Assembly (NCBI RefSeq): GCF_014236855.1 | Contig: NZ_CP051261.1 | Location: 2,790,001-2,854,000, forward strand | Reading direction: 5' to 3' | Length of the DNA: 64,000 nt | From: Xanthomonas sp. SI | GTDB taxonomy: Bacteria; Pseudomonadota; Gammaproteobacteria; Xanthomonadales; Xanthomonadaceae | In this document: in pieces, positions 4,477 through 63,702 of the stretch | How positions within the stretch are numbered: the first letter of the stretch is position 1 | Layout of the letters: the number at the start of each line of letters is the position of its first letter | Notes under the pieces: model-generated | What the model saw: only the letters and a program-made list of their open reading frames with translations | What the model was told of the DNA's origin: nothing | The model's database searches: none | Program-made: the position numbers and the translations under genes

Positions 4477-4495
4477 CGGTATCGCCTGGTTCGGT

Positions 4496-8457: not shown

Positions 8458-8484
8458 ATCGGCCGCAGGAACACTGCGGCCGAT
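8458..8484 (-). terminator. Hairpin ending the CHASE3-MCP transcript, abutting the next promoter
   Basis: A perfect 10-bp inverted repeat (ATCGGCCGCA/TGCGGCCGAT, 8458-8467 and 8475-8484, loop 7) lies 37 bases beyond the stop of the MCP at 8521. On the minus strand it is followed by TCAATTT, which also forms the -35 box of the next MCP promoter. The U-run is weak, so termination efficiency is uncertain. Confidence 0.5.
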
Positions 8485-8520
8485 CGGACCCTCATGCGGC
8501 GGCGCTCGCTGCCGCCGGAC

Positions 8521-10734: not shown

Positions 10735-11130
10735 CGATGGATCCCGAAATTGAGGATGAAACGGGCTGTGAAAGGAGGACGGCAGCGCGGCGGATGCCGA
10801 TCGCCGCATCCATGTCCTCTGTAACGGCCGGGCCATGGCCAAGTTCAATCGATTTCTCGACCGCAATAGATAGTCTCAGTCAATCGTTATTGGATGTTCT
10901 GCTATGCGGTGGCTTGGATTTGGCGGGTTCAGACCCGCCATGCGGTGCGTTTGTGGTCTGTGCCACAGAAAACGCGTGTGACGTATCACGGCAGGCCATG
11001 GTTGGCACTGCATCCCAGAACGCGACTCGGCCGCGGGGATTCCGCGGCCGACTGGTGTTGCGTTGCGCTCCGGTCAGGCGGCAGCCGGGTTTCGGTCGCC
11101 GCCATTACGGTGTGGCCCGCGCCCTTGCGG
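10735..11130. other. Intergenic region with hairpin and degenerate FliA-like promoter
   Basis: No credible gene. A perfect 9-bp hairpin (CGGCCGCGG/CCGCGGCCG, 11028-11050) follows the MCP at 11131-13296 but lacks a U-run. Just beyond it on the minus strand, GGGATGCAGTGCCAACCA (11016-10999) resembles the promoter at 8431-8457 (GGGACGCAGTGCCGATAA) with a damaged -10. The hairpin-promoter module thus seems to have been copied along with the MCP genes. Confidence 0.45.
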
Positions 11131-13296: not shown

Positions 13297-13387
13297 GTAG
13301 CTGACTCCTTGAGGGGCAATCAAATTTCTTTCACTAAGCAATAATATTTTTATGAAATTGCGAAGTGAGTCGCATTTTGTCTACTTT

Positions 13388-13413
13388 ATAGCGGCGCTGC
13401 CCTCTGGACCTTT
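13388..13413 (-). promoter_or_regulatory. Sigma-28 (FliA) promoter of the 4HB-type MCP
   Basis: Minus strand: -35 TAAAGGT, spacer of about 12 bases, -10 GCCGCTAT (13395-13388). The MCP start is at 13296, so the leader is about 85 bases. Confidence 0.65.
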
Positions 13414-13575
13414 AGGCGGCTCGATCATCTGGTACACGTTGCCGATGTCGGGATCCGGCCGCGCTGTGCCGCCTGCCTGGCGACGCCGTCCGCCGCTTCC
13501 GCGATGTGCGGCACTCTCTGTTGCTGGCTGGATGGCTGTTGCAGGCGTGCACGCGCAGGCGTGGCCAAAACGCAA

Positions 13576-13601
13576 AAGCCCCGGCATCGCTGCCGGGGCT
13601 T
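13576..13601 (-). terminator. Rho-independent terminator after cheA
   Basis: A perfect 11-bp stem (AAGCCCCGGCA/TGCCGGGGCTT) with a 4-base loop lies 45 bases beyond the cheA stop. On the minus strand it is followed by TTGCGTTTTGG. This separates the STAS-cheY-cheA operon from the MCP array downstream. Confidence 0.8.
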
Positions 13602-13645
13602 GGGTCTTGCTGGCCGCGCAGCGCGCGGCGATCCGTCAGGAACAA

Positions 13646-47991: not shown

Positions 47992-48006
47992 TGCAAGCGG
48001 TGTGCC
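47992..48006 (-). promoter_or_regulatory. Sigma-54 promoter of fliEFGHIJK
   Basis: Minus strand: -24 GGCAC (48006-48002), 5 bases, -12 TTGCA (47996-47992), with GG-N10-GC spacing exact. Confidence 0.85.
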
Positions 48007-48088
48007 GAAATCCGGCGGGTGCCGATCTGCTACGCGGCAGGACGGCGGAATGCGCGGCGCATCGCAACGACACGGAGCTTCGCCCGTA

Positions 48089-48136
48089 CCCTCATCCGCC
48101 CCTTCGGGGCACCTTCTCCCGCAGGGAGAAGGGGGG
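48089..48136. repeat. Xanthomonas-type double palindrome between fliE and the glycosyltransferase
   Basis: Two adjacent hairpins, GCCCC-TTC-GGGGC and CCTTCTCCC-GCA-GGGAGAAGG, preceded by CCCTCATCC. This is a widespread intergenic repeat form in Xanthomonas. It lies past the stop of the glycosyltransferase gene and before the fliE promoter, so it may end the former transcript. The rest of the 47954-48295 gap shows no gene. Confidence 0.75.
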
Positions 48137-48295
48137 CGCGTACGTGCGACGGTCGGCGCCGGATGCGTCGGCTTCCCGGCGCGGCTCGGCGGAGGGTCTC
48201 GGCCGTCGGTGTCGGCCGATTGACGCGTCGCGCCGGCGTGGGTCCTGGCCCGGATCAGGATGCAATCCTGGTGCCGGTTCCGGCGGCCGCTGCGC

Positions 48296-51200
48296 TCAGT
48301 CCGGCAGCCAGGCCGCGCGCCAGGCCTGCAGGTTGGCGCCTTCCAGCATCCAGTCGCGGCGCACCGCCGCGTGCAGCGCGTCGCCGGCTGCGGCACGGGC
48401 GGGGGCATCGGCCAGGTGCATGCGGATGGCGTTGACCCAGTCGCGGAAGCGGTTCTTGACCAGGGTGGCCGGCAACCCGCTTTGGTAGGGCGGCAGGTCG
48501 CTGGCCACCACCGGGTAGCCGCAGGCGCCGTATTCGAGCAGGCGCAGATTGCTCTTGCAGCGGTTGAACAGGTTGTCTTCCAGCGGCGCCAGTGCCAGGT
48601 CCAGGCGCAGCGCGGCCAGGGCCTGCGGATAGCGTTCGAAATCCACGCCCGGGTGCACCTCGGCCACATGCGGGCGCAGCCGCTCCGGGCACATGCCCAT
48701 GAACACCCAGTGCACCTCGCCGGCTAGCGCCTGCACCACGTCGGCGATCAGTTCCAGGTCGCCGGTGTGGCTGGCGCCGCCGGCCCAGCCGACCCGCGGC
48801 TTGGCGCCGGCGCCGGCGCTGGTCCTGGCCGGCGCGGGCAGATCGCCCCACATGCGCGGATCCAGCCGGTTGTGGACCACGCGGATGTCCGCATGCAGGC
48901 CGGCCAGGGCCTCGGCCAGGGCAGGGGTGGACACCACCACCCGGTCCACCAGCGTCGCGGCGCGGCGCAGCGAGCGCAGCACGTCCTTGGGCATCTGCTC
49001 GCGATGCACGCTCTTCAGCGGCAGGTTGGGCAGGTAGTCGTCCAGCTCGTAGACCTTGAACGCGGTGGAGAAGCGGCGCATGCGCTCCATCTTCGCCAGT
49101 TCGACGTCGCCGACCCGGCGCTGCACCACCACCGCGTCGGGGGCGATGCGCTGCATCTCCACCGGATCGAGCAGGCGCGCGTAGTAGACGCCGTCGATCT
49201 GCCCGGCCTCGGCCAGCGCCTGGAACGGCTGGATCACTCGGTAGTGGCCGCTGCCGAACGCGTCGCCGGGATGCGCCAGGATCCGCGGCAGCGGCTTCCA
49301 CGCCAGCGGCTGCCAGGAGAACTCGGATTCGCCCAGCTTGAAGCCGCCCGGCTGCTCCAGGCCCAGGCTCGGCGAGTAGGCCGGATCGTGCGCCATGACC
49401 GGCAGCCAGCGTTGCAGCAGCGCGTCGTCCGCAGTTTCCGGCCGTGACGGCGCGGGCGGTTGCAGCAGCAGCGCGTCCGGCGTCCAGACCGTCCATTCGC
49501 CCAGCGCCGCGGCGCGCAGGCACAGGTCCACGTCGGCGCCGCCGTCGGCGAAGCCGCCCGCGTCGAACCCGGACAACCGCTCGAACAGTTCGCGCCGCAC
49601 CAGCATGCAGCGCTCGGACACGGCGCTGTAGCGGTGCGCCACCTGCAGCCGGCCCATGTAGCCAGCCTGCGCCATCGGCTCGCCGGCGAAGGCGTGGCCG
49701 GCGCCGGGCAACAGCCCGGGCAGCAGACCCGCATGGGTGATGGTGGCATCCGCGGACACGCCCTTGGGACCGACGATACCGACCTCCGGGCGCTGCGCAT
49801 GGTTCATCAGTTCGTGCAGCCAGCGGCCCTGGACCACGGCGCTGTCGGCGTCCAGGAACAGCAGGTAGTCGCCATGCGCCTGGGTCGCGGCTAGGTTGCG
49901 CGCCTCGGCCTGGGCCACGCGCTGCTCCAGCGCGAACACGCGGATGCGGCCGTTGCCCAGTTCGGCCACCGCCTGCAGCCATTCGCCGACCGCTGGCGCG
50001 TCGCTGGCGTTGTCGACCAGCAGCAATTCGTAGGCCGGGTAGGCGGTGTGTTCGAGCAGGCCGACCACCAGGCGCTGCAGGGCCGGCAGATTGTCCTGGG
50101 CGATGGTCACGATCGAGACCGGCGCCTGCTGCGCATGGCCATAGTCGATGCGATGCAGTCCGCCGGGCAGCGTGTCGATCCTGGCGTCGGCATAGCCGCG
50201 TGCGCGCAGGTGGCTGGCGACGGCGCGCTGACGCGCCTCGGCGCCCGCGGCGGCGTCAGCCGGTGGCGCGATCAGCAGCGGCTCGGGCAGATGCGCCAGG
50301 CTGGCGCCGGCGTCGCGCTGGAACAGGCGCAGGATCAGTTCCAGTTCCAGCGCGCCATCGTGGTCGGGATCGAACCCGCCCAGCTCCTGTACCAGGGCGC
50401 GGCGGAACACCCAATGCCCGGCGGTCGCCAGCGGATTGCCCAGCAACAGGTCCAGATCCGGATCCGGGCGCAGCACCGGGGCCAAGGTCTGGCTGTCCAG
50501 CGCCAGCCATTCGTCGGCATACAGCGCGCTGCAGTGCGGCTGCTGCGCCAGTTCCAACACCAGCCGCAGCAGGCCGCCCTGGCAGAAACGGGTACCGGCG
50601 ACGACGCGCAGAAACCAGTCGGCATCGCCGAGTTCGGCCAGCGCGGCGTTGAGGTCGGCGGCCTCGTCGGCGGACGCCAGCGGCAGATGCCGGACCCGCG
50701 GATCCGGCCACGGCGTGGCCGTCGCGGCGCCGAGCACGGCCACGCTCAGCGTGGCGAAGGCGGCGCCGTCCAGCAGCAGGCTGTGCAGGCTGGCTTGCAG
50801 CGCGGCCGCGTCGGCGTTGCGCGCATCCAGCAGCACCGCGATCCGCGCGCCGCCGCCCAGTTCCGCCAGGCGCGCGTCGAACAGGGCGCGCTTGGCCGGC
50901 GGCAGCTGCCGCTGCGCCTGCCAGTCGCGCAGCGCCAGCTGGGCGCGGCCGCGCGCATACGCGGCCTGGATCGCCTGCAGCAGATCGACCGGTTCGGCGT
51001 TGCCTCCGTCCAGTGGCGTCACATGGACCAGGCGCACGTCGCCGTCGCCGCGGTACCAGCCCATGGCACGCACGCCTCGGCGGAAATCGTCGTGGCCCTG
51101 GTCGCCGATCCCCGGCTGGTCGCGGCCGGCTTGGCTGAATTGGTCCTGCGTCACCCGGAAGCGGGTCAGCGGCCTGGCCAGCAGCGCCAGGTTGCCGCGG

Positions 51201-51823
51201 TGCAGCAGCTTGGCGTACAGGGCCAGGTCGCCGACCCAATGGATCACCTTGCCGTCGAGCATCATCAGCTGGTCGCCGATCTCCAGCAGATCCTGGCGCC
51301 GGCACAGCACGCAGCTGGGCTCGCCGATGAAGTTGATGGTGTGGTCGGCGAGGAAAGACAGCAGTTCGGGGCCGTCGAGCAGCACGTCGCCTGCGAACGG
51401 GAAGCTGGTGGCGTGAATGTCCGGCAGCGGCGCATCGTCGCCATCGATGCGCTGCCGGCGCGAGGAGGCCAGCACCACGTTGGGGCTGGCCTGCATGGCC
51501 CGCACCAGCGCGGCGATGCAATCCGGTTCCAGCACGTCGTCGTCGTGCAGGAATTTGACGTATTCGCCCTGCGCCAGGCCGATGCCCTTGATGGTGCTGC
51601 CGAGTTCGCCGTGACGGAACGGGTTGCGCTCGTAGCGGATCGGGAAGCTCGCGCTTGCGCGCTTGCGCTCCACCGCCGCGGCGATCGCGCCATCGGGATT
51701 GTCGTCGCAGATCACCAGTTCCAGCGCCGGATAGGTCTGGCCCAGCACGCTGTCGAGCGTCCGCTCGAAGTACCGGAACTTGTAGGTCGGCATGACGATG
51801 CTGACCAGCGCGTGGGAACTCAT
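48296..51823 (-). CDS. Large multidomain glycosyltransferase, probable flagellin glycosyltransferase
   Basis: 1,175 residues. The N-terminal GT2 domain (1-about 260) begins VSIVMPTYKFRYFERTLDSVLGQTYPALELVICDDNPDG and holds the DxD-like HDDDVLEPD. The middle region (about 320-850) contains a degenerate GT2-like unit and a second clear GT2 unit (PVSIVTIAQDNLPALQRLV, LLFLDADSAV, SGFDAGGFADGGADVDLCLR). The C-terminal part (about 880-1175) resembles a GT4/GT1 fold (PRVGWAGGASHTGDLEL, LRLLEYGACGYPVVASDLPPY). No signal peptide or membrane helix, so cytosolic. Its place between fliE and a sugar-biosynthesis operon, with a sigma-54 promoter, suggests it adds glycans to flagellin before export. Acceptor and donor are inferred, not shown. 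Start ATG 51823. Confidence 0.85.
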   Translation of the reverse strand: MSSHALVSIVMPTYKFRYFERTLDSVLGQTYPALELVICDDNPDGAIAAAVERKRASASFPIRYERNPFRHGELGSTIKGIGLAQGEYVKFLHDDDVLEPDCIAALVRAMQASPNVVLASSRRQRIDGDDAPLPDIHATSFPFAGDVLLDGPELLSFLADHTINFIGEPSCVLCRRQDLLEIGDQLMMLDGKVIHWVGDLALYAKLLHRGNLALLARPLTRFRVTQDQFSQAGRDQPGIGDQGHDDFRRGVRAMGWYRGDGDVRLVHVTPLDGGNAEPVDLLQAIQAAYARGRAQLALRDWQAQRQLPPAKRALFDARLAELGGGARIAVLLDARNADAAALQASLHSLLLDGAAFATLSVAVLGAATATPWPDPRVRHLPLASADEAADLNAALAELGDADWFLRVVAGTRFCQGGLLRLVLELAQQPHCSALYADEWLALDSQTLAPVLRPDPDLDLLLGNPLATAGHWVFRRALVQELGGFDPDHDGALELELILRLFQRDAGASLAHLPEPLLIAPPADAAAGAEARQRAVASHLRARGYADARIDTLPGGLHRIDYGHAQQAPVSIVTIAQDNLPALQRLVVGLLEHTAYPAYELLLVDNASDAPAVGEWLQAVAELGNGRIRVFALEQRVAQAEARNLAATQAHGDYLLFLDADSAVVQGRWLHELMNHAQRPEVGIVGPKGVSADATITHAGLLPGLLPGAGHAFAGEPMAQAGYMGRLQVAHRYSAVSERCMLVRRELFERLSGFDAGGFADGGADVDLCLRAAALGEWTVWTPDALLLQPPAPSRPETADDALLQRWLPVMAHDPAYSPSLGLEQPGGFKLGESEFSWQPLAWKPLPRILAHPGDAFGSGHYRVIQPFQALAEAGQIDGVYYARLLDPVEMQRIAPDAVVVQRRVGDVELAKMERMRRFSTAFKVYELDDYLPNLPLKSVHREQMPKDVLRSLRRAATLVDRVVVSTPALAEALAGLHADIRVVHNRLDPRMWGDLPAPARTSAGAGAKPRVGWAGGASHTGDLELIADVVQALAGEVHWVFMGMCPERLRPHVAEVHPGVDFERYPQALAALRLDLALAPLEDNLFNRCKSNLRLLEYGACGYPVVASDLPPYQSGLPATLVKNRFRDWVNAIRMHLADAPARAAAGDALHAAVRRDWMLEGANLQAWRAAWLPD

Positions 51824-51914
51824 GCAGGATTGACCGTCTCGAAGAAGAAAAGCCGCAGCGGCGGTGGTATCTGGCGCCAGCGTCTGGCGGATGCCGCATC
51901 CGATCCGATGCCTA

Positions 51915-51929
51915 TGCAACATGCGTGCC
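51915..51929 (-). promoter_or_regulatory. Sigma-54 promoter of the glycosyltransferase gene
   Basis: Minus strand: -24 GGCAC (51929-51925), 5 bases, -12 TTGCA (51919-51915), with exact GG-N10-GC spacing. The ATG lies about 90 bases downstream. Both boxes are perfect, the same quality as those before fliE and fliL. Confidence 0.8.
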
Positions 51930-52307
51930 GGGGCGCGAGCGACCGGCTCCATCTCGCTAGCGCGTGGCCTGCCCAGGGTTGCCCGGTGTCGGTGCGCTGT
52001 CCCGACGGTACACGACCTCGATCCAGTCGGTGCGCAGGCTCTCCAGTGCTCTACACGTGTAAATTGATCCGATTCGGCATGCTATAGCCGTGGCGGCAGC
52101 GGTGAGCGCAGCGTCCAGGAAGCAGAAAAGAGCGTGCTTAAGCGCAGGTTTACTGTCGGCGTTGCTCGAGCCGGGCGGCGGCCGGTGCTGAGCGGTGCGG
52201 CAACCGGAGACACCGCGCCAAGCCCAACCGCTGGCCGTGGCCGGAGGCGATGCCCGCGGCAGAGCGTTGGGCGAGCGAAAGCCTTGGTGCTTGGCTACTG
52301 GAGCGGC

Positions 52308-52339: not shown

Positions 52340-53461
52340 TCACTCCACGTAGAGAATGGTGTCGAAGAAATACATCGAGTAGTGGCGCAGCCGGAATTGG
52401 GCGTCCGGATAGATCTCATCGAGCACGGCCACGATGTCCAGCAGATCCAGCGCATGGTGATAACAGGTGATCGCCATCCGCGGGCGGCAGCGGCCGATCA
52501 GCTTGGCCGCACCGCGCAGGACGTGCGGCTCGAAGCCCTCCACATCCATCTTGAGCAGCGTGATCTGCTCCAGCACGTCGTCCAGGCGCACGCTGGGCAC
52601 CTGGATATCGCCGTCGGCCTCGACCCGGCTGCCCATGGTGCCGCTGGCCAGGAACGACAAGGGCTGGTTGGAATCGGACACGGCCTCGTTGTGAAGAAAG
52701 ATCGGGCCGGATGTTGACTGCAGGCGGCGTTGCAGGGCGGCGAAGTTGCGCGGGTCCGGTTCGTAGGCGTGGATCGATGCGTAGCGGTGGCGTGCCGCGG
52801 TCATGAACTTGCCGACCGTATCGCCATCGTAGGCGCCGATGTCGACGTAGTGCTCGTGGTCGTGCAGCACGATCGGCGTGTCGCTGGAGGAATACATGGA
52901 AAAGTATTCCTGTTCTATCGGGCAGATCACATCCAGCAATTCCGCTCTGTTGCCGGTCATGCGCAGGCGCAGTACCGCGTCCAGCGTGGCGCGACTGAGC
53001 TCGTCTTGCAGACGCAATCTCAATGCGGCGAAATCGGCTGCGTGCTCTTGCGTCTGCGCGCGCATGAGCTTTCCCGTCTGATAGATCCACTGCCGGTCCA
53101 GGGCATAGAGCAGTTCTGGCAGATCGACTACTCTGCCTGGCAGCGTACGCGCCAGGTGATCGAAATACAGCCACGTCGACAGCAAGAAGGCGCAGTTCAC
53201 CGCAATGGAATTCGGCTGCTGCGGGCTTGAGAAGTGGGCGGCGACGGTGCGGATCTCGTCGAAGTCAGGGGCCTTGTCGCGATTGGCATGGAGGTAGTCG
53301 TCCGCCGCGATCAGGCGGAGCTTTGCGGATCGTTTCCGCAGTTCCCCCACGAGGAGACTGACGAAATCTCCCAGGGTGGAACTCGGCGCCAGAAACACGA
53401 TCGTTTCCGCGCGCATGCAGGCTTCCAGCAAGTCTGTATCGTGTTGGCTGGTATATGTCAT
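52340..53461 (-). CDS. FkbM-family methyltransferase
   Basis: 373 residues. The C-terminal half is a Rossmann methyltransferase: the S-adenosylmethionine loop is YVDIGAYDGDTVG (205-217), an acidic residue follows strand 2 (AYEPDPRNF), and the FkbM hallmark is LLKMDVEGFEPHVLRGA (302-318). The first 200 residues form a separate domain that I do not recognise. FkbM enzymes usually O-methylate sugar or polyketide hydroxyls. In this operon a sugar O-methylation is likely; flagellin amino sugars of Pseudomonas syringae carry a 2-O-methyl group. Last gene of the operon, ATGA overlap with the upstream acyltransferase. Confidence 0.85.
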   Translation of the reverse strand: MTYTSQHDTDLLEACMRAETIVFLAPSSTLGDFVSLLVGELRKRSAKLRLIAADDYLHANRDKAPDFDEIRTVAAHFSSPQQPNSIAVNCAFLLSTWLYFDHLARTLPGRVVDLPELLYALDRQWIYQTGKLMRAQTQEHAADFAALRLRLQDELSRATLDAVLRLRMTGNRAELLDVICPIEQEYFSMYSSSDTPIVLHDHEHYVDIGAYDGDTVGKFMTAARHRYASIHAYEPDPRNFAALQRRLQSTSGPIFLHNEAVSDSNQPLSFLASGTMGSRVEADGDIQVPSVRLDDVLEQITLLKMDVEGFEPHVLRGAAKLIGRCRPRMAITCYHHALDLLDIVAVLDEIYPDAQFRLRHYSMYFFDTILYVE

Positions 53462-54087
53462 GGTCGTCCGCCGTTGAGAATATGTGCGCCTTGAGGCATC
53501 AAGGCATCATGAAAGCAGCGATCCGGCAGGGCAGCCGGCAGCATGCTAGGCAACAGCCACTCGCAATGGCGGCCGATCTTGGCCTTGGCTGGGGCAATGC
53601 AGCCCCGGCCCAGGGTGCTGCATTGCCCGATCTCCACGTCGTGGCCCAGCAGGACGCCTGCCTGCAAGGTGACGCAAGCACCCAGGCGCACGTTCTGCTC
53701 GACGATCACTTGCCGCTCCAGCCAGCTACCGGGACCGATGCTGCTGCCGAAAGCCAGGTTGCAGCCGGGGCCGACATAGACATTGCCCATCAAGCGCACG
53801 TCGGTATCGACGTGGGCATGCGGCGAGACAAGATTGATCGTGCGATAGCCGGCCAGGCGCACGTCGGCCAGCAACTTATGCCGCGCATGGTTGACCGCGC
53901 GTTCGTCGAGCGCGATGAACACCTCGGTGGTGCTGGCAACGTAGCGCGCCAGCAGTTGGCCAAGATCGAAGTTGTAGTGGTCGGCCGACGTCAGCGCTAG
54001 ACGCGTATGGACAAGCCCGCAGTCCTGCGCGGTACGCTGCGCCTGTTCCAGCGCAGCGCCTTCGCCCAGCAATACGAGCGACTTCAT
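53458..54087 (-). CDS. Left-handed beta-helix (hexapeptide) acyltransferase
   Basis: 209 residues starting MKSLVLLGEGAALEQAQ. The N-terminal part (1-95) is a small alpha/beta domain without a clear nucleotide-binding GxGxxG. From about 95 to 185, hexapeptide repeats ([V/I]x-G-pattern: AHVDTDVRLMGNVYVGPGCNLAFGS in two segments) predict a left-handed beta helix of the NeuD/PglD kind. It may transfer an acyl group from CoA or ACP to the sugar amine. It overlaps both neighbours by 4 bases (ATGA). It is the second such enzyme in this operon; the two may act on different positions. Confidence 0.75.
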   Translation of the reverse strand: MKSLVLLGEGAALEQAQRTAQDCGLVHTRLALTSADHYNFDLGQLLARYVASTTEVFIALDERAVNHARHKLLADVRLAGYRTINLVSPHAHVDTDVRLMGNVYVGPGCNLAFGSSIGPGSWLERQVIVEQNVRLGACVTLQAGVLLGHDVEIGQCSTLGRGCIAPAKAKIGRHCEWLLPSMLPAALPDRCFHDALMPQGAHILNGGRP

Positions 54088-55223
54088 GTCGGCTCTCCCA
54101 GCACGTTGGCGCGATACCACAGATGCTGCAGCACCAGTTGGGTTTCGTAATCGCCGTGCATGAACTTCCGGGAATGGGGGCCGAGAACTGCTTGCATGCG
54201 CTCCAGTACCGCGGTGTCTTCGGCGATGACCTCGTGTTCGATGCGAATCAGCGCGCTCAGCAAGGCGGTGAAGTCCGTGCGTTCGCTTTTTCGGCGAGCG
54301 GTCATCACCCACAGGTGGTAGTCGGTTTCGTGCGCGGACACTGGATCGTATTGTTGCAGCACGAAACTGTCGCCACGCACGCTGTAAAAGTTCACATTAG
54401 GGTAAATGAACCAGTTATAGAAGGCCGATTCCTCGCCGTAGCCATCGCAAAGCGCGCTATACCAATTCGCATGTGGCGTGATCGACGCTTTTGCGGGGAA
54501 GCTCAGTTCGCTCAGGGCAGGGCGCATACGCGATTGTAGAAGCTCCTGTATGTGAGACGGAACGTTAGCCGGGCGCTCCACATTAGCGGAAGGCTTACGT
54601 GCGTCCGCCATCAGCGGGCTGAACGTCTTGGGATGGACGAACGGAACATGGTTGTAGTCCTTGACGTTCTCCATGTTCAACTTCCAGTTGTAGCGCACGC
54701 GGTGGCAGCTGTAGATGATCTGCGAATCCAGGTGCATCGACGCTGCGCGGATATCCTCCAGAAACTCGGGCGAGAACTGCTCCTGCAGCGGCAGCGGATC
54801 GTCCGAGAAGTTCACGAACAGTAACTGGCCGATCTGTTCCAGACGGAACTGGGTCAAGCAAATGCCGGCTTTTTCTTCGGCACTGAACTGGTACAGCCCG
54901 GAATTGGGCAGTCCGCGCAGCTCGCCTTCCGCGCCGAACGACCAGGCGTGGTAGGGGCAGACCAGCGGACGCTTGCCCTGGCGTTCGATCTGGATCGCCG
55001 ACTGACGGTGCGGGCACTGGTTGAGGAAAGCACGGATACCGGCGTCGGTGCGCTGGATCAATACCGGTATGCCTGCCACCTGGCGCGAGAAGAACTGGTT
55101 GCGTTCCCGCACCATCGAGGAAAAGCCGACGAAATTCCACAGCTTGCCGAACAGCCGCTGCTGTTCCAGGCGCAGGGTGTGCTCGCTGATGTAGTGCTCG
55201 GCATCGAGTGCGTGGCGGGTCAT
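54084..55223 (-). CDS. Rieske-type aromatic-ring-hydroxylating oxygenase, alpha-subunit-like
   Basis: 379 residues. The N-terminal Rieske domain has the [2Fe-2S] ligands Cys70, His72, Cys89 and His92 (NQCPHRQS, LVCPYHAWSF). The catalytic domain has the mononuclear-iron motif ENVKDYNHVPFVHP, with His192 and His197 and the electron-bridging Asp189. All metal ligands are present. Such enzymes hydroxylate or desaturate a substrate with electrons from a reductase, sometimes through a ferredoxin; neither partner is encoded nearby. In a glycan operon the substrate may be the acyl group or the sugar. Start ATG 55223, with a 13-base gap to the NeuD-like gene, the widest in the operon. Confidence 0.88.
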   Translation of the reverse strand: MTRHALDAEHYISEHTLRLEQQRLFGKLWNFVGFSSMVRERNQFFSRQVAGIPVLIQRTDAGIRAFLNQCPHRQSAIQIERQGKRPLVCPYHAWSFGAEGELRGLPNSGLYQFSAEEKAGICLTQFRLEQIGQLLFVNFSDDPLPLQEQFSPEFLEDIRAASMHLDSQIIYSCHRVRYNWKLNMENVKDYNHVPFVHPKTFSPLMADARKPSANVERPANVPSHIQELLQSRMRPALSELSFPAKASITPHANWYSALCDGYGEESAFYNWFIYPNVNFYSVRGDSFVLQQYDPVSAHETDYHLWVMTARRKSERTDFTALLSALIRIEHEVIAEDTAVLERMQAVLGPHSRKFMHGDYETQLVLQHLWYRANVLGEPT

Positions 55224-55236
55224 GGTGCGGGTCCTG

Positions 55237-55893
55237 CTACCTGCTGAAGATGGTGCGTGCGGGATTGCCGGCCACGGTGACGTTGGGCGGAACGTCCTTG
55301 ACCACCACGCTGCCGGCGCCGATCACCGCGCCATCGCCGACGCTGATCCCCGGGATCAGCGTGGAATGCGGGTGGATGACCACATCGCTGCCGATGCTGA
55401 CGCCGCCGCCGATGAACACGAAATTGCCGATCTGCACGTAGTCGCCGATCGTCACGTCGTGACCGACGATCGTGGTGGACAAGATGGTGACGAATTCGCC
55501 GATGCGGCTATCGGCGCCGATCGAGACGCCGACTTCGAACACACTGCCGCGCCCGATCGGGGTGGCCGAGGCTTCGCGCAGGCGCGGGCGCAGCACCATG
55601 AAGTCCGCCCCGCGCGCGATCAGAGGCTGGCTGTAGCGGCGGCGCGCGGCAGGATCGCCCAGCGCGCACACGAAGATGTCGCCCTCAACGGGCTGGTAGC
55701 TGTCAGGATCCCCAACGATGGGCCAGCGCGTGGTCCGGCCAAGCTCGCTGCGGCTATCCAGGAAACCCTTGATGTCCCAGAGCAGCCCATGTTCGGGATC
55801 GTCGTGACAGGCCATGGCCGCGATGCCGCGGCCGAAACCGCCTGCGCCGACGATCACGACGTGCGAGGGTGTTGTGTGGACGCCGCTGCTCAC
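55237..55893 (-). CDS. NeuD/PglD-like sugar O- or N-acyltransferase
   Basis: 218 residues. The N-terminal domain has a dinucleotide-fold-like GAGGFGRG (16-23), typical of the sugar-binding domain of NeuD/PglD proteins. From about 95 onward there are left-handed beta-helix repeats (IGADSRIGEFVTILSTTIVG, VTIGDYVQIGNFVFIGGGVSIG), and it ends with the family motif VVVKDVPPNVTVAGNPAR. It probably acylates the 4-amino group of a UDP- or dTDP-sugar. The start is GTG at 55893, overlapping the SDR stop as GTGA. Confidence 0.85.
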   Translation of the reverse strand: MSSGVHTTPSHVVIVGAGGFGRGIAAMACHDDPEHGLLWDIKGFLDSRSELGRTTRWPIVGDPDSYQPVEGDIFVCALGDPAARRRYSQPLIARGADFMVLRPRLREASATPIGRGSVFEVGVSIGADSRIGEFVTILSTTIVGHDVTIGDYVQIGNFVFIGGGVSIGSDVVIHPHSTLIPGISVGDGAVIGAGSVVVKDVPPNVTVAGNPARTIFSR

Positions 55894-56669
55894 ACGAATT
55901 CGATGCCTCCATCCATGCTGACGGCCTGCCCGGTGATCTTGCTGCTGGCATCGGAAAGAAAATACAGGCATGCCAGGGCGATGTCCTGCGGCTTGCCCAC
56001 GCCCAGCGGATAGCGCTTCTGGTTCTCCTCGAACCAGGCCTTGTCCTCGGTGATCAGCGTGGTCTCGACCAGTCCGGGACACAATGCGTTGGCGCGGATC
56101 TTGCGGCGCGCCAGTTCCAGCGCCAGCGGACGCAGCGTACCCAGCAGTGCGGCCTTCGAACCGGCATAAGGACCGACGCCGACAGTGCCGGTCAACGCCG
56201 CGATGGACGAGAGAAAGACGATGGAGCCGCTTGGGCGAATGGACTGACGCGCGAGCAGGTGCCGGGTCAGCATCACCGGCGCGATGTAGTTGATGTCCAT
56301 TACTTCTTTGAGGAAGGACTCGGAGACAAGCTTCATCGGCGCCAGGCCGCGGATGCCGGCGCTGTGCACCAGCCCATCGATCGCACCGCACTGCGCTGCC
56401 AACTGCTGCAGGGTGGCTGCCTCGCTCAAATCGCCGACGAACAGGCGATGGCCTTCTCCCTCCAGCGAATCCAGCGTGGCGGTCAGCCGTGTGGCGTCGC
56501 GTCCGCTGACGATCACGCTGGCTCCCGCCGCTGCGCAGGTCTGCGCGACGGCGACGCCGATTCCTTTCGAAGCGCCGGTGACCAGTACCGTCTTGCCCTG
56601 CAACCCGAACATCTCGCGCAGCAGCGTGCCGGTGGCGTGGCTAGCTGTCATGTCGGTCTCCGCAGTCAT
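55890..56669 (-). CDS. Short-chain dehydrogenase/reductase, FabG-like (second SDR)
   Basis: 259 residues, classical SDR. Cofactor loop TGASKGIG (31-38), HSAG, catalytic Ser155, Tyr168 and Lys172 (PYAGSK). C-terminal YFLSDASSKITGQAVSMDGG as in FabG. Likely an NAD(P)H-dependent 3-oxoacyl reductase acting on the ACP-bound chain made by the KAS III of this operon; a sugar oxidoreductase role is possible. The ATG at 56669 overlaps the previous SDR by 4 bases. Confidence 0.88.
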   Translation of the reverse strand: MTAETDMTASHATGTLLREMFGLQGKTVLVTGASKGIGVAVAQTCAAAGASVIVSGRDATRLTATLDSLEGEGHRLFVGDLSEAATLQQLAAQCGAIDGLVHSAGIRGLAPMKLVSESFLKEVMDINYIAPVMLTRHLLARQSIRPSGSIVFLSSIAALTGTVGVGPYAGSKAALLGTLRPLALELARRKIRANALCPGLVETTLITEDKAWFEENQKRYPLGVGKPQDIALACLYFLSDASSKITGQAVSMDGGIEFV

Positions 56670-57433
56670 AGGCGCATCATCAGTGAGAGTCCGCCGTCGA
56701 TGGTCATGGTGCTGCGCGTGACCCAACGGCTCGCGGCGGACAGCAGGTAGACGGCAGCCTGCGCGACGTCTTCCGCTGCGATGAGTCCAAGCGGGGTCAG
56801 GCCGATATTGGTGTCCATGTTGGCGGCCTGCCGCAACCCATCGAGCATCGGCGTGTCGACATAACCTGGGGCGATGCAGTTGGCGCGGATGCCTTGCCTG
56901 CCGTGCTCCAGTGCCAGTGTGCGCACGGCCGCCTCCAGGGCGGCCTTGGCGGCGGCGTAGCCGGTGGCCGCCTGCGGCGCCGCACGGGCCGCCAGCGCCG
57001 AAACGAACACCAGCGAGGCGCCCTGGCGCAGCCGTCGCTTGTACAGCAGTTGCTGGGTCAGCGTGATCGGTGCCAGGTAATTGATCGCCAGCATCTGCTG
57101 CAGGTGTTTCTCGGCAGCCATTCGGAACGGCACCAGCGCTGCCACGCCGGCACAGGAGACCAGGCCATCGTAGCCGTCGGCGGCATCGAGCAATCGCTGG
57201 CGGGTCGGCGCCTCGCTCAGATCGCCTGCCACCACGCTGTGACCGCTGCCGTCCAGCGCGGCGGACACCGTTTGCAGTCGCTCCGGGTCGCGTCCATTGA
57301 GCACCAGCCTGGCGCCCAGTCGGGCGCAAAGCGTGGCGGTGGCGGCGCCGATGCCCGAGGACGCTCCGGTCACCAGCACGACCTTGCCGGTCAGGTCGAA
57401 GGCCTCGGTGGAGATGGTGGCGGTCACGGTCAC
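56666..57433 (-). CDS. Short-chain dehydrogenase/reductase (first SDR)
   Basis: 255 residues, classical SDR. Cofactor loop TGASSGIG (22-29), Ser145, Tyr159 and Lys163 (YAAAK), and C-terminal YLLSAASRWVTRSTMTIDGG. Related to but clearly distinct from the next SDR, so the pair is not a recent duplication. One may reduce a 3-oxoacyl-ACP while the other works on another carbonyl. The start is GTG at 57433, overlapping the KAS III stop as GTGA. Confidence 0.88.
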   Translation of the reverse strand: MTVTATISTEAFDLTGKVVLVTGASSGIGAATATLCARLGARLVLNGRDPERLQTVSAALDGSGHSVVAGDLSEAPTRQRLLDAADGYDGLVSCAGVAALVPFRMAAEKHLQQMLAINYLAPITLTQQLLYKRRLRQGASLVFVSALAARAAPQAATGYAAAKAALEAAVRTLALEHGRQGIRANCIAPGYVDTPMLDGLRQAANMDTNIGLTPLGLIAAEDVAQAAVYLLSAASRWVTRSTMTIDGGLSLMMRL

Positions 57434-58470
57434 GACTCGATCAGATCAGGAAACACCGCGCCTTCGATATCAATCAGGCAGGTACCCCACGACAAGCCGA
57501 TGCCGAAACCGCACAGCAGCACGCGCTTGCGGCCCGATTCCAGTTCCTTGTTGATGCGTGCGGTCATGGTCACCGGCAGCGAGGCGCCGCTGGTGTTGCC
57601 GAAGTCGCGCAGGGTCGAAGGCACTTTTTCCACCGGCAGGCCGAGCTTCTTGCGGATGGTTTCGTTGATCATCCGGTTGGCCTGGTGGAACACGAAATAG
57701 TCGATCTCGTCCTTGGACACGCCTGTGTAGTCGAGCAGTTTCTGCACCGCTGGCGGCACGCGCTGGGTGGAGAAGCTCAGCACTGCCACGCCGTCCAACT
57801 GCAGGTCTATGCCGCGGTGCCAGGCATCGTTCTCGTCGGCGCGGAACGGCATCAGGTGCTGGATGCCGACCGGCTCGCGCTGGCCGCCCACCGGCAGGAT
57901 GATCGCCTTGTAGCCGCTGCCGTCGCTGTTGAGGTCGAAATACATCGGCGCGGCGTCGGCGCTGAATTCCAGCGCGGTGGCGGTGCCGGAATCGGAGAAG
58001 ATCGGGTCCTCCAGGTTGGCGCTGCGGTCGCCCACCAGCAGCAGGCCTTTCTTGACTCCGCCGGCGGCGATCATCGAGCCCAGCAGGTTGATGCCGAACG
58101 GATAGGCCGAGCAGCCCAGGTTGACGTCGAAGGCGACGGTGGCATGCGACAGGCCCAGCCGGTCCTGCAGGATGATCGCGGTCGCGGGGATCGGATAGTC
58201 CGGCGACTGGGTGACCACGATCAGCGCATCGATTTCCTCGCGCTGCCATTGCAGCCGTTCGATCAATACCTGCGCCGCATCGAACGCCAGGTCGGAAAAA
58301 CACTGCCACTCCTGCGCCATGCGCCGGGTCTCGATGCCGATGTTGCGCACCAGCCGCTCGCGCTCGGAACGGATCTGCGGCCGGCAATCGGTCAGGTTGG
58401 AGACGATGCGCTTGGGCACGCAGGTCGCCATGCCGGCAAAGCGCACGTTGTGCAGCGTGGAAGTCGGCAT
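57430..58470 (-). CDS. 3-oxoacyl-ACP synthase III (KAS III/FabH-like)
   Basis: 346 residues, thiolase fold. The catalytic triad is complete: Cys120 (VNLGCSAYPFG), His262 (FHQANRMI) and Asn292 (FGNTSGAS). It condenses an acyl-CoA starter with malonyl-ACP; with acetyl-CoA the product would be acetoacetyl-ACP. It is next to a private ACP gene (1-base gap) and two SDR genes, so it is probably not the housekeeping fabH. In Pseudomonas syringae a KAS III gene in the flagellin glycosylation island is needed for the 3-hydroxybutyryl amino sugar. By analogy this enzyme may supply the N-acyl group. Confidence 0.9.
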   Translation of the reverse strand: MPTSTLHNVRFAGMATCVPKRIVSNLTDCRPQIRSERERLVRNIGIETRRMAQEWQCFSDLAFDAAQVLIERLQWQREEIDALIVVTQSPDYPIPATAIILQDRLGLSHATVAFDVNLGCSAYPFGINLLGSMIAAGGVKKGLLLVGDRSANLEDPIFSDSGTATALEFSADAAPMYFDLNSDGSGYKAIILPVGGQREPVGIQHLMPFRADENDAWHRGIDLQLDGVAVLSFSTQRVPPAVQKLLDYTGVSKDEIDYFVFHQANRMINETIRKKLGLPVEKVPSTLRDFGNTSGASLPVTMTARINKELESGRKRVLLCGFGIGLSWGTCLIDIEGAVFPDLIES

Positions 58471-58471
58471 G

Positions 58472-58696
58472 CTACGCCTCGGTCAGCTGGTAGAGGTCGC
58501 CCACGGTGACAGCGGCGGCCAGGTGCTCGCCGGTGATGGTCTTGCCGTATTCCATGTCGAACATCACGATCACGCCGAGCGCGGCGAGCGAATCCCATTC
58601 GGGAAGCTCGCGCAGCACGGTGTCCGTTGTCACCTCGACCGGCGTCTGGAAATCGGTCGCCGACAGGAAATTCTCGATAAACGTTGCTTGGCTCAT
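58472..58696 (-). CDS. Acyl carrier protein
   Basis: 74 residues, acidic, helical. The phosphopantetheine site is Ser36 in PEWDSLAALGVIVMFD, the DSL motif of carrier proteins. It carries the acyl chain made by the adjacent KAS III. The sequence differs from housekeeping AcpP (no GADSLDTVEL), so it is a dedicated carrier. The ATG overlaps the aminotransferase stop by 4 bases. Confidence 0.92.
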   Translation of the reverse strand: MSQATFIENFLSATDFQTPVEVTTDTVLRELPEWDSLAALGVIVMFDMEYGKTITGEHLAAAVTVGDLYQLTEA

Positions 58697-59868
58697 TCTT
58701 GTTCCACAGGGTGGGCGGAGGAGGGAACAGTCGCCGGAGGGCGACCGCTTTTTGCAGCGGCTGGCACAGTAGCGCCGGCGATCAGGTTGGCGATGGTTTC
58801 CACGTCGCCGGCGCTCAGGCCGGGATAGATCGGCAGGCACAGCACCCGCTCGGATGCCTGCCGCGCCACCGGAAGCCCGGCCGGCGCGGCCGAGGGCAGG
58901 CCGCGGTACATCGGGAAATCGCTGATCAGCGGATAGAAGTAGCGGCGCACCAGGATCTCGTGCTCGCGCATCAGCTGATGCAGGCCGTCGCGGCTCAGCG
59001 GGAAGTCGTCCTCGATCAGGATCGGGAACGAGGCGTAGTTGGCCAGTTCCGGCGAGCGCGGCGCCAGGCAACGCACGCCGGGGACCTGCGCCAGGCGCCG
59101 CCGGTAGTCGGCGTCGATCTCGCGGCGTTGCGCCAGCGCACGATCGATGTGCTGCAGTTGCAGCAGGCCGAAGGCGGCGTTCACCTCGCTCATCTTGCCG
59201 TTGATGCCGGTGGCCACCACCGTGGTCTCGTCGACGAAGCCGAAGTTCTTCAGCCGGCTGATGCGCTGGTAGGTCTTTGCGTCGGGGCAGACGATGGCGC
59301 CGCCTTCGAAGGTGTTGAACACCTTGGTGGCGTGGAAGCTGAGCACGCTGAGGTCGCCGTGGCGCAGGATCGAGCCGCCGTCGTCCTTGACCCCGAAGGC
59401 GTGCGCGGCGTCGTAGATGACCTTGAGGTTGTAGGTGTCGGCGATGCGCTCGATCGCGGCGGTGTCGCACGGCGTGCCGTAGCAGTGGACCGGCATGATC
59501 GCGGTGGTCTGCGGGGTGATCGCGGCCTCGATCTTCTGCGGATCCAGGTTCAGCGTGACCGGGTCGATGTCCACGAACACCGGCTTGATCCCTTTCCAAA
59601 GCAGCGAATGCGCGGTGGCCACGAACGAGTAGGGCGTGGTGATCACCTCGCCGGTGACGCGCAGCGCCTGCAGCGCGGTGAGCAGGGCCAGCGTGCCGTT
59701 GGTCAGCAAGGCCAGGTGTCCCACGCCCAGGTACTCCGCCAGCGCCTTTTCCAGCGCCCGGTGCATGTCGCCGCCGTTGGTCAGGATGCGGCTGCTCCAG
59801 ATCTTCTCCAGGTACGGCACGAACTCGTCCAGGGGAGGCAGCAGCGGACTGGTGACGGGAATGGGCAT
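58693..59868 (-). CDS. DegT/DnrJ/EryC1/StrS sugar aminotransferase (VioA-like)
   Basis: 391 residues, fold-type I PLP enzyme. PLP-binding Asp153 (VIYDAAHAFGV) and Schiff-base Lys182 (LSFHATKVFNTFEGG) are present. It transfers an amino group from Glu or Gln to a 4-keto (or 3-keto) deoxy-nucleotide sugar. The closest functional match by context is VioA, which makes dTDP-4-amino-4,6-dideoxyglucose (viosamine); regiochemistry cannot be read from sequence. First gene of a nine-gene operon. Start ATG 59868, about 70 bases past a sigma-54 promoter. Confidence 0.9.
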   Translation of the reverse strand: MPIPVTSPLLPPLDEFVPYLEKIWSSRILTNGGDMHRALEKALAEYLGVGHLALLTNGTLALLTALQALRVTGEVITTPYSFVATAHSLLWKGIKPVFVDIDPVTLNLDPQKIEAAITPQTTAIMPVHCYGTPCDTAAIERIADTYNLKVIYDAAHAFGVKDDGGSILRHGDLSVLSFHATKVFNTFEGGAIVCPDAKTYQRISRLKNFGFVDETTVVATGINGKMSEVNAAFGLLQLQHIDRALAQRREIDADYRRRLAQVPGVRCLAPRSPELANYASFPILIEDDFPLSRDGLHQLMREHEILVRRYFYPLISDFPMYRGLPSAAPAGLPVARQASERVLCLPIYPGLSAGDVETIANLIAGATVPAAAKSGRPPATVPSSAHPVEQE

Positions 59869-59934
59869 GGTGGCCTGCGTGGGTGCGTGTGAGAATCCGC
59901 GGCGCGGATCGTTGCGACGGGGTTCTGTTCTGAA

Positions 59935-59951
59935 AGCAAGCCATATGCCAA
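59935..59951 (-). promoter_or_regulatory. Sigma-54 promoter of the glycan-biosynthesis operon
   Basis: Minus strand: -24 TTGGCAT (59951-59945), 4 bases, -12 CTTGCT core (59940-59935), with exact GG-N10-GC spacing. One mismatch to TGGCAC. It would drive the aminotransferase-to-FkbM operon, and fleQ ends about 200 bases upstream. Confidence 0.75.
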
Positions 59952-60148
59952 CAGACGTGTCCACTGCTTCCGCGTTCGCCTGCGGGAAGCGCGCGACGAT
60001 CCCCATCGTTCGCGACACAGCCGCATCGGGCCGGCCGGACGCGCGTCCGGAAAGCATGCGATGCGTAGAGGGGAGGGTACTTCAGTTTCTAGCCGCGGTC
60101 GTTCCGTAGCGCAGCAAGCGCGCGACGACGCGGATCGCGAACGCGCGC

Positions 60149-61635
<1,487 letters not shown>

Positions 61636-61639
<4 letters not shown>

Positions 61640-62019
61640 GCCGGTACTCCCTCTGTGCGTAAGCCCTCCAGGATCGGCATCACTTCCTGGATATAGGACA
61701 GCTTGCTGACGAAGTTGTCGGCACCGGCGCGCATGGCGTGCTCGCGGTGCTCGGCATCGTCGAAATGGCTGGCGATCACGATGTACGGGGCCTGGTCCTG
61801 GGTCTTGATCAGGCGCGTGGCCTGCAGGCCGCCCATTTCGGGCATGGCCAGATCCATCAGCACCACCTGCGGGCGCAGCGACTCGGAGCGTTCGATCGCC
61901 TCCAGGCCGTTGGCGGCGCTGCCGATCACTTCCATCCAGTCCAGCTTGCGGAAGTGGCGCATCGCGGCGTTGATGAAACCTTCGTGGTCGTCGACCAGAA
62001 GCACGGACAATTTGTTCAT
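61636..62019 (-). CDS. vemR: Orphan single-domain response regulator VemR
   Basis: 127-residue receiver domain without an output domain. Acidic pair in LLVDDHEG (10-11), phospho-acceptor Asp56 (VVLMDLAMP), and Lys in FVSKLSY. In Xanthomonas campestris VemR is encoded between rpoN2 and fleQ and affects motility, exopolysaccharide and virulence; position and length match here. No histidine kinase is adjacent. Starting at ATG 62019 puts the phospho-acceptor at residue 56. An ATG two codons earlier (62025) is possible. Confidence 0.92.
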
Positions 62020-62032
62020 GTGCATTGTTTCC

Positions 62033-63430
62033 TTAGCCCGCGCGGGCCAGCAGCGGTTTGGCGCGACGGCGTTCGCGGGCGGGGGCGATATCCAGTTGTT
62101 CACGGTACTTGGCCACGGTGCGCCTGGCCACGTTCACGCCCTGGCGCGACAGCAGGCCGGCGATCGCCTCGTCGGCCAGCGGCCGCCCGGACGGCTCGGA
62201 TTCGATCAGGCGCCGCACCATCGCGCGCACCGCCTGTCCCGAAACCGCGGCGCCTTCCAGGCGTACGGCGAAGAAATGCTTCAGTTCGAAGGTACCACGC
62301 GGCGTCTGCAGGTACTTGCCGGTGGTGATGCGCGACACGGTGGATTCGTGCATGCCGATCGCGTCGGCCACTTCCTTCAGGGTCAGCGGCGCCATCGCTT
62401 CCTCGCCCCTGACCAGGAACGCGGCCTGGCGTTCGACGATGGTGCGGGTGGTGCGCAGCAGGGTCTCGTAGCGCATCGACAGGCCGCGGGTCAGCCAACG
62501 CGCCTCCTGCAGCATCTCGCGCAACGGCGCCGCCGCCTCGCCGGCCTCGGCCAGGGCGCGCTCGTGCATCGGATTGACGGTGACGCGGTGGGTGGTGGCC
62601 GGGTTCAGTGCCACCCGCCAGGTGCCGTCGCTGTGCCAGGCGACCACGTCCGGGATCACGTGGCCCAGGTTCTCCGGCAGCAGGCTGTCGCCGGGGCGCG
62701 GCTGCAGCGACAGGATCAGCCGCACCGCTTCGCGCACGTCGTCGGCTTCGGCGTCCAGAAGGCGCGCCAGCAGCGGGTAATCGTGGCTGGCGAGCAGGTT
62801 CAGATCGCCGGCAAGGACGCGTGCGGCCAGATGGCGGCCGGCGACGCGGCCGGGCAGGGCGGCCAGCTGCACGCTCAGGCATTCGCGCAGGTCGCAGGCG
62901 GCCAAGCCGGCGGGGTCGCCGTGCAGCAGCCGCTGGCGGATCGCTTCCACCTGCGCGGCGGAGCGGTCGAAGCGCGCGCAGGCGAGCAGGGTCAGCGTGT
63001 CCAGCGCGCCGTCGAGGTAGCCGGCATCGTCGCTGTGCTCCAGCCAGAACGCGGCCACTTCCAGGTCGCGCTCGTCCAGTTCCAGCGCCAGGCGCTGCAG
63101 CACGCGCAGCTGCGGATCGGTGGACTCGCCGGCGGCGATGCGTTGCATGCGGTCGTCTTCGCCCTCGCTCCAGCCGGCGGCGGAGATGTCCCACATCGAG
63201 GATTCGGGCAACTCGTCGAACGCGGCGGTTTCCAGTGTGTCGTCGTGGTTTACCACCGGCTCGAGCACGCCTTCCGGCTCTTCCAGTTCCAGCAACGGAT
63301 TGGTTTCCAGCGCGCGCCGGATTTCCATTTCCAATTGCATCCCGTCCAGTTGCAGCAGCCGGATCGACTGCAGCAATTGCGGGGTCAGGTGGAGTTGCTG
63401 GCCAAGCTGGGCGGAGACGGTCGGCTTCAT
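62033..63430 (-). CDS. rpoN: RNA polymerase sigma-54 factor RpoN
   Basis: 465 residues. N-terminal activator region QHLTPQLLQSIRLLQL-like (residues 10-27, LHLTPQLLQSIRLLQLDGMQ), core-binding domain, and a C-terminal DNA-binding domain ending in the RpoN box ARRTVAKYREQL. Directs FleQ-dependent flagellar promoters. In Xanthomonas this flagellar-locus copy is called rpoN2; another copy may exist elsewhere. Fourteen bases separate it from vemR, so rpoN-vemR-fleQ form one unit. Start ATG 63430; the upstream in-frame extension is not RpoN-like. Confidence 0.95.
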   Translation of the reverse strand: MKPTVSAQLGQQLHLTPQLLQSIRLLQLDGMQLEMEIRRALETNPLLELEEPEGVLEPVVNHDDTLETAAFDELPESSMWDISAAGWSEGEDDRMQRIAAGESTDPQLRVLQRLALELDERDLEVAAFWLEHSDDAGYLDGALDTLTLLACARFDRSAAQVEAIRQRLLHGDPAGLAACDLRECLSVQLAALPGRVAGRHLAARVLAGDLNLLASHDYPLLARLLDAEADDVREAVRLILSLQPRPGDSLLPENLGHVIPDVVAWHSDGTWRVALNPATTHRVTVNPMHERALAEAGEAAAPLREMLQEARWLTRGLSMRYETLLRTTRTIVERQAAFLVRGEEAMAPLTLKEVADAIGMHESTVSRITTGKYLQTPRGTFELKHFFAVRLEGAAVSGQAVRAMVRRLIESEPSGRPLADEAIAGLLSRQGVNVARRTVAKYREQLDIAPARERRRAKPLLARAG

Positions 63431-63474
63431 GCGAACTTCCTCGGTTTGGCGCCAACCCTCTGGCGCCCGTGGAA

Positions 63475-63490
63475 TGCATAGTGCTTGCCA
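63475..63490 (-). promoter_or_regulatory. Possible sigma-54 promoter upstream of rpoN
   Basis: Minus strand: TGGCA (63490-63486), 6 bases, ATGCA (63479-63475), with GG-N10-GC spacing exact but two mismatches in total. The rpoN ATG is 45 bases downstream. It would mean self-regulation of rpoN. Confidence 0.35.
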
Positions 63491-63534
63491 CCTGACGGTA
63501 ACAGAATCAGGGCGTTCCTGAGCGGGGTAGTCAA

Positions 63535-63577
63535 ATTCCCGACAGCATGTGGGGAAAATCCCTACATCGGCGTAGGG
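63535..63577. promoter_or_regulatory. Palindromic and paired motifs upstream of rpoN
   Basis: The 272-base gap before rpoN has an interrupted palindrome CCCTAC-ATCGGC-GTAGGG (63560-63577). On the minus strand it also has TGTAGGGA (63566-63559), 15 bases, GTCGGGAAT (63543-63535). The same two words occur 14 bases apart upstream of the MCP at 1759. Candidate regulator site; the regulator is unknown. Confidence 0.4.
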
Positions 63578-63702
63578 GGCGCCGGTCGATCGGCGCTGCA
63601 GAGTCAACGCTGGCGGGCTTCGACGGTTTCACGGCGGCAGCTGAGCGGTTAAGGCAAGCCGCATGCCAGTGCGGTGCGTCGGGAACCCGTTCCCGGCTGC
63701 GC

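What the first reader, a model, noticed from the sequence alone, without database searches (positions are those of the whole stretch)
52340..59868. Nine-gene operon that looks like a complete pathway for an unusual N-acyl amino sugar
Seen: nine minus-strand genes (aminotransferase, ACP, KAS III, SDR, SDR, NeuD-like acyltransferase, Rieske oxygenase, hexapeptide acyltransferase, FkbM methyltransferase). Most junctions are ATGA or GTGA overlaps. Known: Pseudomonas syringae flagellin carries viosamine with a 3-hydroxybutyryl amide and a 2-O-methyl group, made with an aminotransferase, KAS III, ACP, acyltransferase and methyltransferase; Xanthomonas has a flagellin glycosylation island at this place. 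Inferred: the operon makes a related sugar with an extra oxidation by the Rieske enzyme. That gene combination could yield a sugar not yet described.
Basis: partly seen in the sequence, partly recalled or inferred. Interest (0 to 1): 0.85.

Follow-up and report, generated by a model that had tools for sequence, protein, structure and literature searches.

The report
Flagellin-sugar operon with swappable oxygenase pair
This is a known kind of Xanthomonas operon that makes a sugar for the flagellum protein; comparing relatives suggests that its unusual oxygen-using enzyme works as a pair with a small partner protein, and that strains have repeatedly swapped this pair.

Summary
The nine genes are real and in the order given; a tenth, a 1175-aa glycosyltransferase, follows. 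The operon lies inside the flagellar cluster (RpoN and a sigma-54 activator upstream, FliE and FliF downstream) behind a conserved sigma-54 site. It corresponds to the published ten-gene gigX flagellin-glycosylation island of X. oryzae, so the system is not new. The aminotransferase and NeuD-like enzyme are nearest to DesI- and VioB-type enzymes, so an N-acylated dTDP-viosamine is the best guess; the sugar itself is unproven. The Rieske gene is standard: of 55 genomes in two Xanthomonas genera, 49 have KAS III (one partial) with a Rieske gene nearby, 6 have neither. New here: the Rieske gene overlaps a following 'Hex' gene in 49 of 49 readable pairs. The pair has two alleles that never mix and is exchanged separately from a second block (SDRs plus NeuD). 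One genome carries both pairs in tandem; the window's own genome has another pair elsewhere. Hex has a PglD/VioB-like fold, but 50 of 55 lack the catalytic His and 55 of 55 the GNPA motif, so 'acyltransferase' is doubtful. Likely role: the pair oxidises the N-acyl sugar before transfer to flagellin.

The parts
59936..59950 (-). sigma-54 (-24/-12) promoter-like site TGGCATATGGCTTGC, 82 bases upstream of the AT start
   Evidence: exact match (exact matches of this pattern occur 10 times in the window); same site 83-91 bases upstream of AT in 17 of 17 fetched same-genus islands that have KAS
58693..59868 (-). AT: DegT-family sugar aminotransferase, DesI/VioA-like (inferred: makes dTDP-viosamine)
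   Evidence: NCBIfam best PLP_DesI 293 bits, below its 650-bit cut-off; best PDB chain 2po3 '4-dehydrase'
58472..58708 (-). ACP, 78 aa
   Evidence: no family hit; DSL motif in 54 of 54 homologues
57430..58470 (-). KAS III (beta-ketoacyl-ACP synthase III)
   Evidence: 90-98% identical in most Xanthomonas islands
56666..57433 (-). SDR1, block N, allele N2
   Evidence: YxxxK kept in 104 of 104 SDRs
55890..56669 (-). SDR2, block N, allele N2
55237..55893 (-). NeuD/VioB-like sugar N-acyltransferase, block N, allele N2
   Evidence: NeuD_NnaD 169 bits, over its cut-off; best PDB chain VioB 7txp; catalytic His and GNPA in 55 of 55
54084..55223 (-). Rieske non-haem iron oxygenase, alpha-type, allele A
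53458..54087 (-). 'Hex': PglD/PerB/VioB-fold partner of the Rieske gene, allele A, probably not a standard acyltransferase
52340..53461 (-). FkbM-family methyltransferase
48296..51823 (-). tenth gene: multi-domain glycosyltransferase, 1175 aa, VioT-sized
   Evidence: present in 47 of the 51 Xanthomonas islands read, also where KAS-to-Hex is absent

Best explanation
A gigX-type flagellin-glycosylation operon. Inferred path: RmlA/RmlB (elsewhere) give dTDP-4-keto-6-deoxyglucose; AT makes dTDP-viosamine; ACP, KAS III and the SDRs make a short 3-hydroxyacyl (probably 3-hydroxybutyryl) ACP; the NeuD/VioB-like enzyme puts it on the 4-amino group; the Rieske oxygenase, working as a unit with Hex (possibly as a nucleotide-sugar-binding partner), oxidises the N-acyl sugar; FkbM methylates; the large glycosyltransferase delivers the sugar to the flagellin glycan. 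Shown by computation: gene content, location, conserved sigma-54 site, intact active-site motifs, co-occurrence, pairing and allele exchange. Inferred: every chemical step, the substrate of the Rieske enzyme and the role of Hex.
For: Families; position between the sigma-54 activator/rpoN and fliE/fliF, FliC about 8.7 kb upstream of AT, FliD-like ORF between; sigma-54 site conserved in 17 of 17 same-genus KAS islands; published gigX1-10, RpoN2/FleQ-controlled and shown by MALDI-TOF to determine flagellin glycosylation in X. oryzae (passages of reviews); same enzyme set minus Rieske and Hex in the P. syringae viosamine island; VioB as best structure for NeuD, DesI-type for AT; RmlB 510 bits elsewhere; KAS and Rieske in the same 30 of 297 family genomes and the same 31 of 35 in the second genus; Rieske/Hex overlap in 49 of 49 readable pairs, A with A 21, B with B 28.
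Against: The AT score is far below the DesI cut-off (293 vs 650 bits). No mass or NMR data for this strain. The original gigX paper was not held; that X. oryzae has a ring-hydroxylating dioxygenase in gigX is recalled. The Rieske-Hex alleles switch independently of the N-acyl block, and a second pair in the own genome has no KAS, AT or NeuD full-length neighbour within the 11 kb read, which weakens the idea that the KAS-derived acyl chain itself is oxidised. A 38% Rieske relative (L022) and a 25% one beside KAS (L025) have no Hex hit.
Confidence: 0.7

Rival explanations
1. The Rieske enzyme acts before sugar assembly, on the acyl-ACP or free acyl chain, and the NeuD-like enzyme then loads an already oxidised acyl group.
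For: KAS and Rieske occur in the same 30 of 297 family genomes; 6 of 55 genomes lack both; where KAS-to-Hex is missing, AT and GT can remain (2 of 2 inspected). KAS-SDR-SDR-Rieske also sits together in Bordetella hinzii L023.
Against: Rieske-Hex alleles are shuffled against the SDR/NeuD alleles; Hex has a sugar-nucleotide-acyltransferase fold; a second Rieske-Hex pair stands without KAS.
Confidence: 0.2
2. The Rieske enzyme removes a methyl group or oxidises the sugar ring or the amine (for example to a nitro or keto group), like quaternary-ammonium or N-oxygenating Rieske enzymes.
Against: Ring dioxygenases and hydroxylases score within about 1-2 Z units, so the fold does not discriminate. 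The NeuD enzyme has all catalytic features, so the 4-amine is probably acylated.
Confidence: 0.15
3. The operon makes an LPS or other surface sugar rather than a flagellin sugar.
For: Related KAS-SDR-Rieske-Hex sets lie beside ABC-2 permease and ATPase genes in B. hinzii, a setting that suggests polysaccharide export.
Against: Flagellar neighbourhood and sigma-54 site; gigX mutants change flagellin (passage).
Confidence: 0.05

Closest known systems
gigX1-gigX10 flagellin-glycosylation island of Xanthomonas oryzae pv. oryzae (Yu et al. 2018, Mol Plant Pathol 19:579; paper not held, seen through passages of PMC8657755 and PMC6859632)
   Same: Xanthomonas flagellar regulon, ten genes, RpoN2/FleQ control; by recall of its abstract the same ten functions in the same order, including a ring-hydroxylating dioxygenase.
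   Different: Different species group; which Rieske-Hex and SDR/NeuD alleles X. oryzae carries was not determined here.
Viosamine island of Pseudomonas syringae pv. tabaci 6605 (vioA, vioM, vioT, vioS, vioB, vioR, acp; PMC3927599, passages)
   Same: Aminotransferase, KAS III, ACP, one reductase, VioB acyltransferase, methyltransferase, 1173-aa transferase.
   Different: Its seven ORFs include no Rieske gene, no Hex and one SDR; lies between glutamine synthetase and histidine kinase genes.
CntA and stachydrine demethylase (Rieske oxygenases)
   Different: No reductase gene in the operon; substrate unknown.
PglD / PerB / VioB sugar N-acyltransferases (for Hex)
   Different: Catalytic His column is His in 5 of 55 Hex proteins, GNPA motif in none; conserved Cys-Glu instead.
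CMP-Neu5Ac hydroxylase and UDP-MurNAc hydroxylase NamH (recalled)
   Same: Rieske enzymes that hydroxylate the N-acyl group of a nucleotide sugar: a functional precedent.
   Different: By recall they have another catalytic domain; here the standard RO catalytic domain is present.

Membership tests
gigX-type Xanthomonas flagellin-glycosylation island | Ten-gene set with aminotransferase first and glycosyltransferase last | tested here: met
   the gene list of gigX itself is recalled
gigX-type Xanthomonas flagellin-glycosylation island | Embedded in the flagellar regulon with a sigma-54 promoter | tested here: met
gigX-type Xanthomonas flagellin-glycosylation island | Flagellin mass depends on the genes | not testable with these tools
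   reported for X. oryzae only (passage)
P. syringae viosamine island | vioA, vioS, vioR, vioB, acp, vioM, vioT functions | tested here: met
   by family and best structure; VioM and VioT not compared by sequence
P. syringae viosamine island | Product is dTDP-N-(3-hydroxybutyryl)-2-O-methylviosamine | not testable with these tools
   extra Rieske, Hex and second SDR suggest another product
Rieske non-haem iron oxygenase, alpha subunit | CxH..CxxH cluster ligands and 2-His-1-carboxylate iron site | tested here: met
   58 of 58 for both His/Cys motifs; ED motif in 57 of 58, the exception is L023_2
PglD/VioB-type sugar N-acyltransferase (Hex) | Rossmann-like domain plus left-handed beta-helix | tested here: met
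PglD/VioB-type sugar N-acyltransferase (Hex) | Catalytic His and C-terminal GNPA region | tested here: not met
   His in 5 of 55; NPA in 0 of 55; NeuD controls 55 of 55 for both

The most novel reading that the evidence does not exclude
Rieske plus Hex is a self-contained two-protein oxidation unit for nucleotide-activated N-acyl sugars, in which a degenerate PglD-fold protein that has lost acyl transfer binds or presents the sugar nucleotide to the oxygenase; bacteria swap this unit as a cassette to vary the sugar on flagellin and, in other genera, other surface glycans.
Probability: 0.3. Interest if true: 0.7.

Novelty: new member of a known kind. Interest (0 to 1): 0.5.

Why it matters
Flagellin sugars can shape how hosts sense flagellin (recalled). 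The comparison turns a list of odd genes into a testable two-block scheme and gives a partner to an orphan Rieske oxygenase. If the pair hydroxylates a nucleotide sugar it would be a second route to what CMAH and NamH do (recalled), built on a different enzyme class.

Tried and rejected
Considered and rejected: an unusual extra Rieske gene peculiar to this genome (present in 49 of 55 genomes); Hex as an ordinary second acetyltransferase (catalytic His and GNPA missing); Hex's own GHDV in the window as catalytic (it is one coil later and not conserved).

Literature on gigX was seen only as passages. No tool gave the name of the window's species; the genus codes g1 and g17 are unnamed, though four of the g1 contigs have the same length as named records (X. 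albilineans CFBP2523, X. sp. GPE 39, NCPPB 1128, F10).

Limits: allele classes are single linkage at 60% identity; the AT tree is a quick one, AT itself may recombine, and 23 of 47 inner branches are open. G108 runs off its contig after Rieske. G299 has only a partial KAS match (residues 131-346) and no AT in the stretch read. G311 and G239 have shorter GT reading frames (883, 1079 aa).

Full report
What is there. Ten minus-strand genes at 59868-48296 encode, in order, a DegT aminotransferase (AT), ACP, KAS III, two SDRs, a NeuD/VioB-like acyltransferase, a Rieske oxygenase, a hexapeptide-repeat protein (Hex), an FkbM methyltransferase and a 1175-aa glycosyltransferase (GT). Five of the eight junctions between the first nine genes are 4-base overlaps. 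Upstream lie a sigma-54 activator, a response regulator and an RpoN-like gene, downstream ORFs that read as FliE and FliF (these names are by eye from the translations). FliC is at G000:C1:2858184-2858597 (Flagellin_N), about 8.7 kb upstream of AT. A sigma-54-like site TGGCATATGGCTTGC lies 82 bases upstream of AT, and a like site is found 83-91 bases upstream of AT in 17 of 17 fetched same-genus islands that contain KAS; it is not found upstream of AT in the 2 islands without KAS, nor in the non-Xanthomonas loci L015 and L018.

What it is. Reviews state that ten gigX genes of X. oryzae pv. oryzae are controlled by RpoN2/FleQ and, by MALDI-TOF, determine flagellin glycosylation (passages). The original paper is not held; I recall that its abstract lists the same ten functions. 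I therefore treat the operon as gigX-type. The P. syringae viosamine island has the same core but seven ORFs with no Rieske, Hex or second SDR.

Sugar. AT scores best against DesI (293 bits, under the 650-bit cut-off) and against PDB 2po3; NeuD is nearest to VioB, an enzyme solved with TDP-4-amino-4,6-dideoxyglucose; RmlB is present elsewhere (510 bits). This makes dTDP-viosamine N-acylated with a KAS-derived 3-hydroxyacyl group the best guess; none of it is measured.

Distribution. In a draw of 297 genomes of the family (54 genera), a close KAS (E at most 1e-90) and a Rieske relative (E at most 1e-40) were found in the same 30 genomes, all from two genera. For all held genomes of these genera: 18 of 20 (with the window) and 31 of 35 have both, close together; 6 have neither. 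One of the 49, G299, has only a partial KAS match. In 2 of the 6, the ones inspected (G015, G017), AT and GT remain with other genes between the regulator and AT.

Alleles. In the 49 islands Rieske falls in type A (21 proteins, 62-98% among themselves) and type B (29 proteins, 67-99%), 29-35% between types. Hex follows in 49 of 49 readable cases, with a 4-base overlap in 21 of 21 A pairs and an 11-base overlap in 28 of 28 B pairs; A is always with A and B with B. In one case (G108) the contig ends. The block SDR-SDR-NeuD has three alleles: N1 in 24, N2 (window) in 22 and N3 (one SDR) in 3, never mixed. Combinations: N1-B 24, N2-A 17, N2-B 4, N2-A+B 1 (G133, the two pairs in tandem), N3-A 3. 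So two blocks are exchanged separately, but not at random: N1-A and N3-B were not seen.

Breakpoints. Window against G002: 95.3% DNA identity at 57348-62096 and 92.4% at 48000-51935, with only short 70-74% patches, plus one 203-base 81% repeat match, between. Against G154 and G308, long homology (78-79%) stops at 55245-55248, the NeuD/Rieske border. On a quick AT tree, Rieske type needs at least 9 changes and NeuD type 15. AT itself could recombine.

The pair. Outside Xanthomonas, Hex directly follows Rieske in L011, L015, L018, L019, L020 and L024, and follows the first and third of three Rieske genes in B. hinzii L023 (26-30% Hex identity; Hexapep domains). Against: L022 (38% Rieske) and L025 (25%, beside KAS) have no Hex hit. 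The window's genome has a second pair at C1:3649939-3651700, 47-49% (Rieske) and 35-38% (Hex) to type B, with no AT, ACP, KAS, SDR or full-length NeuD match in the 11 kb read; neighbours include a phosphonate-binding-like and a Band 7 protein. A second full-length Rieske relative is listed in 13 of 20 same-genus genomes; only this one was inspected.

Reading. The tight pairing, matched alleles, tandem and stand-alone copies suggest that Rieske and Hex act as one unit on one substrate. The PglD-like fold of Hex points to a sugar nucleotide as that substrate, most likely the N-acyl sugar; recalled precedents for such oxidation are CMP-Neu5Ac hydroxylase and NamH. The independence from the SDR/NeuD alleles and the KAS-free copy argue against the acyl-ACP as substrate. 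Confidence is about 0.7 for the overall flagellin-glycan operon; the chemistry of the oxidation stays open.

Noticed in passing
G000:C1:3649939-3651700 (L138:4939-6700): A second Rieske-Hex pair outside the window, type-B-like, without the sugar or acyl genes of the island in the 11 kb read.
   Followed up: partly
L023 (Bordetella hinzii), 1567-13968: KAS-SDR-SDR-Rieske-Hex followed by ABC-2 permease and ATPase genes and a second ACP-KAS-SDR-NeuD-Rieske-Rieske-Hex set: two related modules in one locus.
   Followed up: partly
L016:9001-12559 (G133): Tandem RieskeA-HexA-RieskeB-HexB in one Xanthomonas island.
   Followed up: partly
L092 and L093 (G015, G017): Islands that keep AT and GT but have other genes in place of KAS to Hex; one ORF of L092 reads like a cytidylyltransferase by eye.
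   Followed up: no
L020:2686-4392 (Pseudogulbenkiania MAG): The related cluster lies next to a TPR plus family-41 glycosyltransferase gene (Pfam).
   Followed up: no
L011 (contig binned as Massilia): An island 78-93% identical to Xanthomonas ones over ACP to Rieske except the SDRs (71-74%) and Hex; either transfer or a mis-binned contig.
   Followed up: no
window 63654-63668, minus: A second exact sigma-54-like site, just upstream of the RpoN-like gene (62033-63607).
   Followed up: no
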